Assembly (NCBI GenBank): GCA_040223695.1
Contig: JAVKFU010000009.1
Location: 124,001 to 188,000 of the forward strand
Length of the DNA: 64,000 nt
Direction: 5' to 3'
DNA from: Deltaproteobacteria bacterium
Lineage (GTDB): Bacteria; Desulfobacterota_D; UBA1144; Nemesobacterales; UBA2774
The translations under genes were made by a program, and so were the position numbers. Below, one piece after another: positions 55,268 to 62,166 of this stretch. The number at the start of each line of letters is the position of its first letter. Positions within the stretch are counted from its first letter, which is position 1. The notes beneath the pieces are model-generated. The model made no database searches. It saw only the letters and a program-made list of their open reading frames with translations, and was not told the DNA's origin.

Positions 55268-56248
55268 ATGAACAAGATATTCCATCCAGTATTTGCTCAA
55301 ATTTTTATATGCTTTCTCCTTATTCCATTTGCGGGCGCATCGGCGGGGGACGTGGAAGGAAGTAAAGACCATCCTGTTGTGTCTAGATATCAGGGCTCGG
55401 AAATCAAGGATTACGATTTCCGCGAATTCGATGAATACACGCTTCTCCTGGGCAAGGTTGTCCGCGCTCCGGGCGAACCCGATAACCGCAAGGCAGAAGG
55501 GAGTGAAAAGCTGGAGGGAAAAGTAACTAAAATATCCTATTATCTCCCGGAGGACAGGTCCACCCTGGAGGTCTTCAAAAACTATGAGGACGCGCTCGGA
55601 GAGGCCGGGTTTGAAATCCTCTATACTTGCGGCAATAAAGAATGCGGCGGGAGGGATTTCAATCACGAAGTGGTCGAGTACAACTCGATGTTCGGGGACA
55701 ACTATTACGATCAGAGGTACCTCGCGGCAAGGCTCGCCCGCCCGGAAGGGGACGTGTATGTTTCGCTCTATACGGTGAAAAATACCACAGGGGGCGGAAA
55801 GGACAGGAACCATATCTATACACAGGTGGACGTTATAGAGGTCGCCCCGATGCAGGAAGACATGGTCACGGTTGACGCGGGCGCTATGGCGGAGGAAATT
55901 TTCAAGACCGGCAGCGTATCCATATACGGAATCTATTTTGATTTCGACAAGGCCGACATAAAGCCCGAGTCAGAAGCCACGATCGCTGAAATAGCCACGC
56001 TTCTCAAAAACAATCCCGGCCTCAATATTTTCATAGTGGGGCATACGGATAATAAGGGAAGCCTCGACTATAACACCGACCTCTCTCAGCGCAGGGCGGA
56101 TGCGGTGGCCGCTGTCCTCGCCCTGGAGCACGGGATCGAGGCCTCAAGGGTCACGCCAAAAGGTCTCGGATTTCTGGCCCCTGTCGCTTCCAACAAAACC
56201 GAAGAGGGTCGGGCGAAAAACCGAAGAGTAGAGCTTGTGGAGAGGTAA
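55268..56248 (+). CDS. DUF4892/OmpA-family outer-membrane-associated protein
   Basis: This 326-residue exported protein has a signal peptide (cleavage near ASAG, residue 26), a DUF4892-type N-terminal domain (about 30-200) and a C-terminal OmpA peptidoglycan-binding domain (about 212-326, with FIVGHTDNKGS and NTDLSQRRADAV). Such proteins link the outer membrane to the wall and are often found in stress-regulated clusters. The CGNKEC pair at about 117-122 could form a disulfide. A GGAGGA site precedes the ATG. No partner gene is apparent nearby. Confidence 0.88.
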   Translation: MNKIFHPVFAQIFICFLLIPFAGASAGDVEGSKDHPVVSRYQGSEIKDYDFREFDEYTLLLGKVVRAPGEPDNRKAEGSEKLEGKVTKISYYLPEDRSTLEVFKNYEDALGEAGFEILYTCGNKECGGRDFNHEVVEYNSMFGDNYYDQRYLAARLARPEGDVYVSLYTVKNTTGGGKDRNHIYTQVDVIEVAPMQEDMVTVDAGAMAEEIFKTGSVSIYGIYFDFDKADIKPESEATIAEIATLLKNNPGLNIFIVGHTDNKGSLDYNTDLSQRRADAVAAVLALEHGIEASRVTPKGLGFLAPVASNKTEEGRAKNRRVELVER

Positions 56249-56846: not shown

Positions 56847-57671
56847 ATGGATGAACGTCAGCAAAAAACCGTACTTATTGACGATCATAAAATCGCTTAT
56901 CGCGAACAGGGTGAAGGTAATCCGCTTATTTTGATACACGGTATCCCTACCTCAAGTCTCTTGTGGCGCAAGGTCATGCCGGCGTTATCAAACAATTACC
57001 GTGTCATAGCGCCCGATATGCTCAATTACGGGAAATCCGATAAACCGTCCGATGCCAACGTATCCATAGAGGCTCAAAGCCGGTATATTCTGAAATTTAT
57101 GGATCAGCTGAATATTGACAGGGCCGATATAGCGGCGCACGATATCGGCGGAGGGGTCGCTCAGATCATGGCTGTCAATTATCCCCGAAGGGTGAATAAG
57201 CTGGTCCTCATGGATTCCGTATGCTTTGATTCCTGGCCGATACCGGAATTCGAGCCCCTTCAGGAGGAGGGCGCGGAGGATAAGATGAGCCTTGACGAGT
57301 TCCTGAAAATGATGAGAGGCTTCATGCCCCGGGGAGTTTATAACGAAGAGGTGATGACGGAAGATGTAATTAATATGTATCTCGAGCCCTGGTCAACTGA
57401 AGAAGGTAAAAAATCGTTATTCAGGAATTTTCGCCGCCTGAACCCGGAATACACTCAGGCTATCGCGGGAGAGCTGAAGCATTTGCCTCATGAGACGCTT
57501 ATTTTGTGGGCGGAGGAAGACGAGTTTCAAAAACCCGAGTATGCTGAGAAGCTGAAAGATACCATCCCCGATGCCGAGCTGATTTTTATAAAGGAGGCCG
57601 GGCATTGGCTGTTGGAAGAAAAGCCCGAAGAAATCTATAAGCATATAATAGATTTTCTTGGCCGGGCTTAG
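56847..57671 (+). CDS. Alpha/beta hydrolase with Asp nucleophile (haloalkane dehalogenase-like)
   Basis: This 274-residue alpha/beta hydrolase has as its nucleophile elbow HDIGGG (His98, Asp99), in which Asp replaces the usual Ser, as in haloalkane dehalogenases, fluoroacetate dehalogenases and epoxide hydrolases. The oxyanion motif is HGIPTSSLLW near residue 31. The acid is probably in WAEEDEFQKPEYA and the base His in EAGHWLLEEKPEE. A GGGAGAG site precedes the ATG. Activity as a dehalogenase or epoxide hydrolase is an inference from the Asp nucleophile only. Confidence 0.8.
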   Translation: MDERQQKTVLIDDHKIAYREQGEGNPLILIHGIPTSSLLWRKVMPALSNNYRVIAPDMLNYGKSDKPSDANVSIEAQSRYILKFMDQLNIDRADIAAHDIGGGVAQIMAVNYPRRVNKLVLMDSVCFDSWPIPEFEPLQEEGAEDKMSLDEFLKMMRGFMPRGVYNEEVMTEDVINMYLEPWSTEEGKKSLFRNFRRLNPEYTQAIAGELKHLPHETLILWAEEDEFQKPEYAEKLKDTIPDAELIFIKEAGHWLLEEKPEEIYKHIIDFLGRA

Positions 57672-57799: not shown

Positions 57800-60118
57800 T
57801 TACTGGCTGCCCGGTATGCTCCACTGTTTCAAACTGCTCCACATAGAATCTGATATACTCTCCGGATAAAAGCCCAGGCATTTTTTGTATAACGATGGGG
57901 TATCAAAAAGAGAATATGTATTCTTGGCGCACGTCAGGCCATAAAAACCGTCGGGCTTTTGGTTATAAAGCGCTGTCCCGATTAATTTGCGGTTCTTGTT
58001 TGTGCTTGCGTTATATCCGCTGGTAATGGCTGAGAGGCTTGCGTTGAAGTAATCGAGCTGTGTTGTGCTGTTCGGGTTATTATAGCGCTGGCATTGGGAT
58101 AAATAATAATCGAGCGGATTTTTCCCGTTCGGCGGGGCGGCAAGAAACTGGTTCAGGATGTTTACAGGCAGACTGCTCATGCTGCACCCGACCGGTGTTT
58201 CGCTTAGCATCGGGTCAATGCCATTCGGGAAATTAGTATTATAGACATTCAAGTGTTCCCATAGAGTAGTTGTGGCTGCCGCGGGCGTGACGAATAAAAC
58301 GGGTATATCCTTCCCAAAACCTCCGAAATAGGCTTCAACCGCATTGTTTGAGGTGTGTTGTTGATATGTGCTGACAGACAACGGCTCATACGGGGCCGAG
58401 GGATTCAATCCGTAATCGTATAAGGCAACTAATGCGATAATATTATTGTATTGGGTGCTGATCGGAGCAAGCTGCTGGAGTTTCGGATCAAAAATTGCGA
58501 TATATTTACCTTCGGCCGATAGTTGCTTGGCAAGCTCTCCGATGAATACCGTTGTTGCGTTCTCCGACAGGGTCGGGCTTTCCAGATCAAATGCAACGCC
58601 GTCCGCGTTCGGATCATTGTTGATGGTGTCTGCGATATCGTCGGCCAGCTTGATTAATGTACCCATACTCGCGTTATTAATTTCATCTGCGCTTCCGTTT
58701 ATCATTGGCAACACAATTCTATTCTCACCGTCTTTAGATTGGTTCTTATAAATGTTTGTAACCGTTGCTCCCGGTAAACAGGTACCAAGCTCGGGGAGAC
58801 TCAGCACAGACTCTTTAATTAGAGGCAGGGATAAGTAATTAAGCACAGAATTGCCCGGGTCAGAGGGGCAAGCTGTGTCGGCGGTCATCAAGCTGCCGTT
58901 AGGCAGATTATTTATGCTGGCGAAATCCGCCAGGATATAGAAATTCTGCCCGCTTGCATCATAGCTTGTTTCCAGCGTCTGCAGTAGTGTTGAGGTGCAG
59001 GAGCCTCCGCTGTCGCAGGTGATATCCTGCGCGACGTCATCGACAATAACACCGTTGCCGGTCGGTATTGAATTCGTCACATTCGCGCCTACAAATGAGA
59101 TTACGTCCTCCGCGCTCACATCGAGGGTCCCGGCGTCATGCTCCCCGCCTTCGGTGATAGATACTTCGTGCGGCACGCCCGCGCTGTTCAGAGCATTGTC
59201 CATATCGAGCGTCTGCTGCCAGGGCACGGTGCAATCGGCAGTCCCGCTTGCGAGAAACATGGGAGGGTCCGTAAAATCCACATGTGTCGCGGGGCTCGCT
59301 TCGGAGAGGTCCGTCTGGTCGCATCCGCTTAACGGGTCGAAAGGATCATCGGGAAGCGGACAGTCGAGTAAGAACCATACAGGAATTGGGTTAAGCTCAA
59401 TGCCGCAGCCTGCCGTGGTGAGCGCTTCGATTCCTTGCGCTACTATTGTGTTCAGCTCGTATGGGCCGTAAAACAATACGGCTCCCGCCACATCGCTTGA
59501 GACTCCGGGATTAACCGGCCCTTCAAGCCCGGCCATCCCGCTCGATGATGCAATCATCGCTGCAAGGTGCGCCCCCGCCGACTCCCCGGCGACAATTATC
59601 AGATTGGGGTCTATTCCCAGCCCGTCGGCATTTAATTTTAGCCACCTTATCGCCGATTTAACTTCATGAATTATTCCCGGCCACGGTTCGGCGTCCGCAC
59701 CCGCAAGCCTGTATCCAACCGACACAAGGTGAAAGCCCGCCCCCTCTGCTATATCAAAAGCTATCTGAGGTATGTCTTCTTTCTCTCCCGTTACCCACCC
59801 CCCGCCGTGAAACCACACCAGCGCGGGTCTGGGAGAAGAACCCCCATCTGTAGATACACGTGACGCGCTTTGGGATGCGGGCTCCTCAATTCTATAGAAA
59901 TCGAGCATCTGCCGCTCCGTCCCGCCGGCAACGTATGAAAATGTCTCGGGCGCGCTCGCGAGCATCCCGCCCGCCTCCACGATACTCCCGCTCGTAGTAT
60001 CATCGCTCGAATTCTCGCTGTCACAGCCTGTCGTGCCCGCCGCCATACATAAACCTAATACCAGCATAATAAATAAAGCGGTATCTCTGGTCATCCATCT
60101 CGTTGTTCTGTCCTTCAT
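57800..60118 (-). CDS. Lipoprotein with esterase domain fused to GH18-like barrel
   Basis: This 772-residue exported protein has two parts. After a signal segment ending in TTGC (possible lipidated Cys32) comes a carboxylesterase of the BD-FAE type (about 55-340): oxyanion motif HGGGW at 104-108, nucleophile Ser180 in GESAGAH, and a later EGGEHDAGT with the base His. From about 345 a TIM-barrel-like domain follows with a GH18 chitinase-like strand DGVAFDLE (506-513), in which the catalytic Glu513 is kept but the middle Asp is Ala. A later strand reads LYDYG (Tyr567, Asp568), as in GH18. It may remove ester groups from, and cleave or bind, a GlcNAc-containing or similar polymer. The combination is unusual and its substrate is unknown. 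Confidence 0.72.
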   Translation of the reverse strand: MKDRTTRWMTRDTALFIMLVLGLCMAAGTTGCDSENSSDDTTSGSIVEAGGMLASAPETFSYVAGGTERQMLDFYRIEEPASQSASRVSTDGGSSPRPALVWFHGGGWVTGEKEDIPQIAFDIAEGAGFHLVSVGYRLAGADAEPWPGIIHEVKSAIRWLKLNADGLGIDPNLIIVAGESAGAHLAAMIASSSGMAGLEGPVNPGVSSDVAGAVLFYGPYELNTIVAQGIEALTTAGCGIELNPIPVWFLLDCPLPDDPFDPLSGCDQTDLSEASPATHVDFTDPPMFLASGTADCTVPWQQTLDMDNALNSAGVPHEVSITEGGEHDAGTLDVSAEDVISFVGANVTNSIPTGNGVIVDDVAQDITCDSGGSCTSTLLQTLETSYDASGQNFYILADFASINNLPNGSLMTADTACPSDPGNSVLNYLSLPLIKESVLSLPELGTCLPGATVTNIYKNQSKDGENRIVLPMINGSADEINNASMGTLIKLADDIADTINNDPNADGVAFDLESPTLSENATTVFIGELAKQLSAEGKYIAIFDPKLQQLAPISTQYNNIIALVALYDYGLNPSAPYEPLSVSTYQQHTSNNAVEAYFGGFGKDIPVLFVTPAAATTTLWEHLNVYNTNFPNGIDPMLSETPVGCSMSSLPVNILNQFLAAPPNGKNPLDYYLSQCQRYNNPNSTTQLDYFNASLSAITSGYNASTNKNRKLIGTALYNQKPDGFYGLTCAKNTYSLFDTPSLYKKCLGFYPESISDSMWSSLKQWSIPGSQ

Positions 60119-60498: not shown

Positions 60499-61230
60499 AT
60501 GACGAGTACTAAATCTAAACTGGGAGAAGTTGGGCAGGGAATAAAAGCGGACAACGCAAGGTGGTCGTTTAGCGGAAAAACTGCGCAGAATTTTAGTGAT
60601 CATGTGAGAAAGTCCGTTCCACTTTATGAAATAGGTCATGATCTTGTATGTAAGCTCAGCGACTTTTTCGTGAGGGACGATTCAGTCTGTTATGAGCTCG
60701 GCGTATCTGTTGGTGATCTAATAGCAAAATTAGCTCGGCATAACCATAAAAATAAAGCAAAATGGGTCGGCGTCGATTGTGAAAAAAATATGATAAGGGA
60801 GGCAGGCAAAAACACCTCCGGGCTCGAAAATGTAATGCTGGACTGCGCAGACATCAATTTATATGAATTCGAAAAATCCGATTTTATCGTATCGTATTAT
60901 ACAATTCAATTTGTACCCCCAAAATTAAGACAAGACCTGCTGAATAAAATATATGAGAGTCTCAATTGGGGAGGAGCGTTCGTCTGGTTTGAAAAGATTC
61001 GCGGTAGTGATGCGAGATTTCAGGATATTATGACTACGCTTTACAACGATTACAAACTTGAAAATAATTTCAGCACCGAAGAAATAATATCTAAAACCAG
61101 AAGTTTGAAAGGTGTGTTAGAGCCATTTTCGACTCAGGGAAATATCGACCTGCTGAAGAGAGCGGGATTTGTCGATATTCAGACCGTAATGACTTATATG
61201 TGCTTCCAGGGGTTTCTCGCGATAAAATAA
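60499..61230 (+). CDS. CmoA-like class I methyltransferase-fold protein
   Basis: This 243-residue protein resembles CmoA, which converts SAM and prephenate into carboxy-SAM for tRNA modification. Alignable pieces are SVPLYEIGHDLV near residue 38, VCYELGVSVGDLIAKL, QFVPPKLRQDLLNKIYESLNWGG, and the KTRSLKGVLEPFS stretch, whose Arg corresponds to the carboxylate-binding arginine of CmoA. CmoB, its partner, is not in the window. Since the next gene is an FkbM methyltransferase and the DNA is AT-rich, it may have been recruited to another pathway. The ATG follows AGAGAGGA. Confidence 0.72.
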   Translation: MTSTKSKLGEVGQGIKADNARWSFSGKTAQNFSDHVRKSVPLYEIGHDLVCKLSDFFVRDDSVCYELGVSVGDLIAKLARHNHKNKAKWVGVDCEKNMIREAGKNTSGLENVMLDCADINLYEFEKSDFIVSYYTIQFVPPKLRQDLLNKIYESLNWGGAFVWFEKIRGSDARFQDIMTTLYNDYKLENNFSTEEIISKTRSLKGVLEPFSTQGNIDLLKRAGFVDIQTVMTYMCFQGFLAIK

Positions 61231-61254
61231 TCCGGTTTTTATATCTCTCTAACT

Positions 61255-62166
61255 ATGCCGCTTGACATTTTAACCAATATTAAACGATCAGCTGCAGTAT
61301 CAATCCTTGGGATTAGTAAATTAGTAAGAGAAAACCGTTTAATCAATGAAATACTTCAGATTACAGGCACTCGTTCGTTGTTAATCGGTTTAAGAGAAAG
61401 ACTGATAGATAACATTAATGATATCTACTATGAGACCGATATCTATCAGACTCGCGTCAAAATGATCGACGGGACTGATGGAAACTTTTATTACAGAATA
61501 GCTATGAATGGGGATATAAGCGAACCCCCTGTCGTTAGGATGATTAATTCTTTATTAAACGAGTTTGATTCGCCTACCTTTGTTGATATTGGAGCACATA
61601 TTGGTTACTACACAATATATGTGGGCAATCTGGTGGGCGGTCGTGGCTCGGTAGTTGCGATCGAACCTAACAAAAGATATTTCGCCACTTTAAAAAAGAA
61701 TATCGAAATTAACGGTATTGAGGGAAGAACAAAAGCTTATAATATGGCGCTTTCCGACAAAATAGGAAAAGCAAACATGGGAGGTGAGGGGGGTAGATAT
61801 TTCACTCAATCGGACACAGGTAACGTAGAAGTCATATCATTTGATGAATTATGCGAAAACGAGAACATCAAACCCGATATAGTTAAAATCGATGTATATG
61901 GCGCGGAGGTCAATGTTCTTTTAGGTATGACCAAAACACTCAGCCGCTATGTAAAACACATGTTTCTTGAGACCCACCGAACCGATTTAATGCACGGGTT
62001 CGATATTTATGACGTACTTAAAATCCTGAAAGACTACAACCTGGAAGTTTTCGAAATAACCGACTTTCGTGAAGAGCATGGCGGGAAATTAGTTCCCGTG
62101 AGTAATGATACTTTCAGAGATTTTAAAGAGTATTATGACCGAATGTTGTATATCAGGCGCGCATGA
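61255..62166 (+). CDS. FkbM-family methyltransferase
   Basis: This 303-residue SAM-dependent O-methyltransferase of the FkbM type often acts on sugars, polyketides or glycans. The SAM-binding region starts FVDIGAHIGYYTIYVG and continues with SVVAIEPNKRYFATLKKN; the family's VEVISFDELCEN and KPDIVKIDVYGAEVNVLLGM blocks follow. It lies 24 bases after the CmoA-like gene and is probably cotranscribed with it. No ribosome site is clear at the ATG. Between its stop and 62323 I see only short open frames that I do not support. Confidence 0.85.
   Translation: MPLDILTNIKRSAAVSILGISKLVRENRLINEILQITGTRSLLIGLRERLIDNINDIYYETDIYQTRVKMIDGTDGNFYYRIAMNGDISEPPVVRMINSLLNEFDSPTFVDIGAHIGYYTIYVGNLVGGRGSVVAIEPNKRYFATLKKNIEINGIEGRTKAYNMALSDKIGKANMGGEGGRYFTQSDTGNVEVISFDELCENENIKPDIVKIDVYGAEVNVLLGMTKTLSRYVKHMFLETHRTDLMHGFDIYDVLKILKDYNLEVFEITDFREEHGGKLVPVSNDTFRDFKEYYDRMLYIRRA

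What the first reader, a model, noticed from the sequence alone, without database searches (positions are those of the whole stretch)
57800..60118. Esterase fused to a GH18-like barrel on one lipoprotein
The N-terminal half has a complete carboxylesterase set (HGGGW, GESAG, late His). The C-terminal half has a strand DGVAFDLE that matches the GH18 chitinase motif DGxDxDxE except for one Asp to Ala change, and a later LYDYG strand like the GH18 Tyr-Asp element. The signal segment ends in a possible lipobox. An enzyme that both de-esterifies and binds or cleaves a polymer on the cell surface would be a new domain combination.
Basis: partly seen in the sequence, partly recalled or inferred. Interest (0 to 1): 0.7.

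Follow-up and report, generated by a model that had tools for sequence, protein, structure and literature searches.

The report
Esterase lipoprotein with chitinase-like second half
An uncultured bacterium makes an exported, probably membrane-anchored protein whose first half is a standard sugar-ester-cutting enzyme and whose second half is an almost unique module that weakly resembles a chitinase barrel; the fusion is real, but what the second half does is unproven.

Summary
One 772-codon frame on the minus strand (57800-60118) encodes a signal segment with a possible lipobox, an alpha/beta-hydrolase esterase and a 426-residue C-terminal half. The fusion is no assembly artefact, since a MAG of another genus carries it. 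The two fused esterases group within a family of stand-alone esterases that end just after the catalytic His, so the C-terminal half was gained in this lineage. That half is nearly an orphan: two carriers among 58 genomes of its phylum, none elsewhere that I could search. Its GH18 identity is only suggestive. The best of 24,736 Pfam models is the EndoS GH18-type barrel (E 0.01, below cut-off). DGVAFDLE and three other GH18 landmarks fall in order, at or just outside GH18 spacing; but the profile match is local, one catalytic-loop Asp is Ala, SxGG is INGS, and strand-8 Trp is Tyr. AlphaFold2 failed on both halves, even the certain esterase, so the fold is untested. Best reading: a carbohydrate-esterase lipoprotein with a divergent, possibly non-catalytic, GH18-like partner. 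Cell-surface location is not shown.

The parts
57800..60118 (-). Whole gene, 772 codons plus stop
   Evidence: ortholog of the same architecture in L007
60159..60188 (-). Promoter-like site TTTACC-18-TATAAT upstream of the ATG; weak, the number of such sites in the region is as expected by chance
60023..60118 (-). Signal segment ending in TTG-Cys32, possible lipobox; Asp33 follows
   Evidence: sequence; ortholog ends in AVGC-D; own-genome paralog in VSGC
59114..59839 (-). Esterase domain, residues 94-335 (BD-FAE / Abhydrolase_3)
   Evidence: E 5.5e-34 and 2.3e-21, above curated cut-offs
59795..59809 (-). Oxyanion-hole motif HGGGW, residues 104-108
59573..59587 (-). Nucleophile elbow GESAG, Ser180
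59234..59236 (-).
   Evidence: conserved in ortholog; Asp-His spacing 32, as in BD-FAE Asp237-His269 (PMC8165983)
59138..59140 (-). His327 in GGEHDAG, triad base
   Evidence: conserved in ortholog
57803..59080 (-). C-terminal half, residues 347-772, candidate GH18-like barrel
   Evidence: PF23916, E 0.01-0.03, below cut-off; purifying selection
58691..58711 (-). LPMINGS, residues 470-476, candidate strand 3 (GH18 SxGG position), 36 residues before the motif
   Evidence: aligns with LPLINGS of GH18 chain 4wiw at E 0.09-0.12
58580..58603 (-). DGVAFDLE, residues 506-513, candidate strand 4 catalytic loop; Ala509 replaces the Asp four before the Glu, Asp511 and Glu513 kept
58409..58423 (-). LYDYG, residues 566-570, candidate strand 6 Tyr-Asp element, Tyr567 at +54 from Glu513
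   Evidence: 23 GH18 domains: +58 to +86
57959..57979 (-). GTALYNQ, residues 714-720, candidate strand 8; Tyr718 at +205 where most of the GH18 domains compared have Trp at +190 to +240

Best explanation
This is an exported, probably lipid-anchored carbohydrate esterase of the BD-FAE type (Ser180-Asp295-His327). In one lineage it acquired, by a single C-terminal fusion, a divergent GH18-like (beta/alpha)8 module. I propose that the barrel half grips, or slowly cleaves, an ester-decorated, probably amino-sugar-containing glycan while the esterase half removes ester groups from the same chain. Shown: the fusion, the esterase family and triad, purifying selection on both halves, and descent from stand-alone esterases. 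Inferred: lipidation, the barrel fold, GH18 kinship and the glycan substrate. Open: whether the barrel is catalytic. The Glu, the Asp two before it and the Tyr-Asp pair are kept, but the Asp four before the Glu is Ala, so I lean (about 60:40) to a binding or weakly active module.
For: Esterase; Asp-to-His spacing of 32 equals that of BD-FAE. Fusion real: the same architecture in L007, 81% identity in the esterase (residues 41-346) and 85% in the C-terminal half. NG86 dN 0.10 / dS 0.54 for the esterase and 0.09 / 0.88 for the C-terminal half. Gain by fusion: 17 esterase hits in 10 of 16 family genomes; the stand-alone ones end 20-39 residues after the catalytic His, where measured. The two fused ones group at 94/96 support, just short of the program's strict mark, within a stand-alone clade. 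GH18-like: the only Pfam match of the C-terminal half among 24,736 models is the EndoS TIM barrel at E 0.01, and its match puts DGVAFDLE near profile position 104, where four real members have their motif at 98-106 by linear interpolation. A GH18 HMM built here ranks the ortholog and the window protein first and second of 2003 (the rest being 2000 shuffles and the reversed sequence), motif on motif. Strands 3, 4, 6 and 8 fall in order at -36, 0, +54 and +205 against -35 to -51, 0, +58 to +86 and about +190 to +240 in GH18 domains.
Against: No GH18 model reaches a curated cut-off: PF00704 does not match this genome at all, and PF23916 scores 16 bits against a cut-off of 27. The profile match is local, strand 4 to helix 4. 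With chitinase-A-like and spore-type GH18 subsets the query does not stand out from shuffles. phmmer against solved structures ranks a phosphorylase and a light-harvesting protein above the GH18 chain. AlphaFold2 was uninformative, and the Foldseek list from that model is a mixture with no significant match. The SxGG and strand-8 Trp elements are altered.
Confidence: 0.5

Rival explanations
1. The C-terminal half is an active GH18-type glycosidase: Glu513 protonates, Asp511 steadies the substrate acetamido group, Tyr567 assists, and the Asp lost at position 509 is not needed, as in GH18 proteins with Asn there. The protein is then a true bifunctional esterase-glycosidase.
For: Asp511, Glu513, Tyr567 and Asp568 are kept in both orthologs. 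GH18-family proteins with a non-Asp residue at this position exist: DGVNIDFE in L057 and L029.
Against: Ala is a bigger change than Asn. The equivalent Asp of Bacillus circulans ChiA1 (Asp200, four before Glu204) is called essential in the title of the 1993 paper cited in PMC11190707 (position mapping mine). Strand-8 Trp is absent.
Confidence: 0.2
2. The C-terminal half is another kind of TIM barrel or a different alpha/beta fold, and the GH18 motif is convergent. It is a lineage-specific accessory module of unknown substrate.
For: No statistically firm match to any GH18 model. Foldseek hits from the poor model are a mixture.
Against: The best of 24,736 Pfam models is a GH18-type barrel, motif on motif; order and approximate spacing of four landmarks match.
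Confidence: 0.27
3. The fusion is an assembly error or a degenerate read-through of two genes.
For: The module is very rare.
Against: The same fusion without stops occurs in an independent MAG of another genus with different neighbours; both halves are under purifying selection.
Confidence: 0.02

Closest known systems
BD-FAE (PF20434; feruloyl/acetyl xylan esterase, PMC8165983) and its relative the GH43-CE protein 6mly
   Same: Esterase half: family match over residues 94-310, Ser-Asp-His triad with Asp-to-His spacing 32; 6mly shows that such an esterase can be fused to a glycosidase.
   Different: The partner here is not GH43 and matches no named family above cut-off. The gene stands alone, in no visible polysaccharide-utilization locus. 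Paralogs outside the fused clade are single-domain.
GH18 endo-beta-N-acetylglucosaminidase barrels of the EndoS type (PF23916)
   Same: Local profile match over strand 4 to about strand 6, with the DGxxxDxE motif in register.
   Different: 16 bits against a cut-off of 27; the Asp four before the Glu is Ala; the rest of the model is not matched.
GH18 protein, PDB 4wiw
   Same: LPLINGS...NADGVVIDFETP aligned with LPMINGS...NADGVAFDLESP, two successive strands.
   Different: E 0.09-0.12, not significant; only 53 residues.
Chitinase-like lectins with altered catalytic motifs (e.g. YKL-40, PMC11190707)
   Same: Model for a GH18 barrel that binds but does not cleave after motif changes.
   Different: YKL-40 lost the catalytic Glu and the Asp two before it; here both are kept and a different Asp is lost.

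Membership tests
BD-FAE-type alpha/beta-hydrolase esterase (PF20434) | Profile match above curated cut-off | tested here: met
   118 bits against 26.8, E 5.5e-34
BD-FAE-type alpha/beta-hydrolase esterase (PF20434) | Ser-Asp-His triad and HGG(G) oxyanion motif | tested here: met
   HGGGW 104, Ser180, Asp295, His327; conserved in ortholog; comparison with BD-FAE Ser128/Asp237/His269
BD-FAE-type alpha/beta-hydrolase esterase (PF20434) | Activity on acetylated or feruloylated carbohydrate | not testable with these tools
   needs enzyme assay
Glycoside hydrolase family 18 | Match to PF00704 or PF23916 above curated cut-off | tested here: not met
   no PF00704 match in the genome; PF23916 16 bits against 27
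Glycoside hydrolase family 18 | DxxDxDxE catalytic motif on strand 4 | tested here: inconclusive
   DGVAFDLE: Glu, the Asp two before it and the leading Asp kept; the Asp four before the Glu is Ala
Glycoside hydrolase family 18 | SxGG on strand 3 | tested here: not met
   LPMINGS at the right spacing but without GG
Glycoside hydrolase family 18 | Tyr-Asp element on strand 6 | tested here: met
   LYDYG present at +54; spacing slightly shorter than the GH18 set, +58 to +86
Glycoside hydrolase family 18 | Trp at end of strand 8 | tested here: not met
   candidate strand GTALYNQ has Tyr718; strand assignment is inferred
Glycoside hydrolase family 18 | (beta/alpha)8 fold | tested here: inconclusive
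   AlphaFold2 pLDDT 35 and 31, failing equally on the known esterase half
Bacterial lipoprotein | Signal segment with lipobox and Cys | tested here: inconclusive
   positive N-terminus, hydrophobic stretch, TTG-Cys32; fits a loose lipobox; ortholog AVG-Cys; no signal-peptide predictor available

The most novel reading that the evidence does not exclude
The C-terminal half founds a new GH18-related family, with Ala in the catalytic loop, known only from this lineage, and the protein is a working two-enzyme lipoprotein that de-esterifies and cleaves one glycan.
Probability: 0.15. Interest if true: 0.55.

Novelty: new variant of a known kind. Interest (0 to 1): 0.38.

Why it matters
Fusions of carbohydrate esterases with glycosidases are known, but I found no described pairing of a BD-FAE-type esterase with a GH18-like barrel. 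If the barrel is real, it would be an orphan GH18 branch gained by an uncultured bacterial group in a genome with no recognizable GH18, and a handle on which ester-decorated glycan these bacteria use.

Tried and rejected
AlphaFold2 of the C-terminal half and of the whole protein with two-row alignments: too poor to use. The esterase half, whose fold is not in doubt, did just as badly, so this is no evidence against a barrel. Foldseek on that model: mixed, no significant match; GH18 chain 4rl3 at rank 10 is not counted as evidence. Searches for more relatives of the C-terminal half: 387 genomes across the domain (only the two known carriers, plus one stop-containing noise match), 58 of its phylum, 17 and 16 of two other groups, plasmids, phages and IMG/VR: nothing. 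A scan of 84,980 species genomes with short peptide patterns, which reaches close relatives only, found just L007. One search aimed at Gammaproteobacteria but reached a small class instead, so large proteobacterial groups were poorly sampled. The phage hit was a DNA polymerase by chance. Viral contigs with AxGVAFDxE were unrelated proteins. A paper found with 'OFTM' was an unrelated string match. Placement of the organism in Dadabacteria was considered from genome sizes in the phylum but not tested.

Full report
The reading frame. Window 57800-60118 on the minus strand holds one open frame of 772 codons. It is a single gene: the gene above it (60499) is divergent and the one below (56847-57671, an alpha/beta hydrolase) is convergent. 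The start of the protein has basic residues, a hydrophobic stretch and ...AAGTTG-Cys32. That fits a loose lipobox; the ortholog has ...AVG-Cys and the own-genome paralog ...VSG-Cys. Asp33 follows the Cys in both fused proteins, which by the E. coli rule (own knowledge) argues against outer-surface sorting, so 'cell surface' is not established.

The esterase half. Residues 94-310 match BD-FAE at E 5.5e-34 and 100-328 match Abhydrolase_3 at 2.3e-21. Against solved structures, 264 distinct sequences match the whole protein at E up to 1, and all of the best 60 lie in the esterase half. The Asp-to-His distance, 32, equals that of BD-FAE (Asp237, His269; PMC8165983).

The fusion. L007, from a MAG labelled Deltaproteobacteria bacterium OFTM235, has the same architecture in one frame. 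Identity is 81% in the esterase (residues 41-346) and 85% in the C-terminal half, with dN 0.10 and 0.09 and dS 0.54 and 0.88, so both halves are under purifying selection. Neighbours differ between the two genomes. Seventeen related esterase hits occur in 10 of 16 genomes of the bacterial family. Apart from the two fused ones, they stop shortly after the end of the esterase domain, and the fused pair groups at 94/96 support with stand-alone members as neighbours (in two genomes with paired genes the script picked one gene twice, giving 15 distinct rows). No stand-alone copy of the C-terminal half was found in the phylum. The simplest history is one gain of the C-terminal half by an existing esterase.

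What the C-terminal half is. The only Pfam match at E up to 10 is PF23916, the EndoS-type GH18 TIM barrel, at E 0.01 in a 24,736-model library, 16 bits against a cut-off of 27. Real PF23916 members from other genomes have their catalytic motif at about profile position 98-106; the match puts DGVAFDLE at about 104 by linear interpolation. A GH18 profile built here from 26 domains ranks ortholog and query first and second among 2003 sequences, the other 2001 being shuffles and the reversed query, with the motif aligned (E 0.018 and 0.056). Other subsets do less well: ranks two and three with the 'mid' and 'endo' sets, no better than shuffles with the chitinase-A-like set, and six and twenty-eight with the spore-type set. 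hhalign gives a local match to GH18, score 28 against at most 21 for six shuffles and a reversed control. These tests share one short stretch and are not independent.

Landmarks. Here LPMINGS lies 36 before, Tyr567 54 after and Tyr718 205 after. Order is right and spacing is close, but three of the classic residues are changed: the Asp four before the Glu is Ala509, SxGG is INGS, and Trp is Tyr. Asp511 and Glu513 stay. GH18 proteins with Asn in place of that Asp exist (L057, L029), whereas the equivalent Asp of Bacillus circulans ChiA1 is called essential in the title of a paper cited in PMC11190707 (the position mapping is mine).

Structure. AlphaFold2 had only two near-identical sequences. 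Mean pLDDT was 34.8 for the C-terminal half and 31.1 for the whole protein, the esterase half being no better. The second run serves as a positive control that failed, so the predictions neither support nor refute a barrel.

Verdict. The combination is real and I found no precedent for it in the literature searches made, but these are limited. The esterase identity is firm; the GH18 identity of the other half is a lead at roughly 60-70%, and catalysis in that half is less likely than not.

Noticed in passing
G000 contig 15, 680489-681418 (L002): A stand-alone lipoprotein esterase paralog (45% identical) in the same genome, without the C-terminal half.
   Followed up: yes
L019 (G005 contig 40, 1633-2541): The second carrier genome also holds a stand-alone esterase 69% identical to the window's, so fused and unfused copies coexist.
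   Followed up: partly
window 57803-59080: The C-terminal half has eight Cys residues, all kept in the ortholog, which suggests disulfides and an exported protein.
   Followed up: no
window 55268-56248: DUF4892 fused to an OmpA domain, a further envelope protein close by.
   Followed up: no
window 60499-62166: Two consecutive methyltransferase genes, the second of FkbM type, divergent from the finding.
   Followed up: no
G001 contig 34, G011 contig 1, G004 contig 186, G009 contig 152: Stand-alone esterase paralogs occur as neighbouring pairs, about 0.2-1.1 kb apart, pointing to tandem duplication in this family.
   Followed up: no
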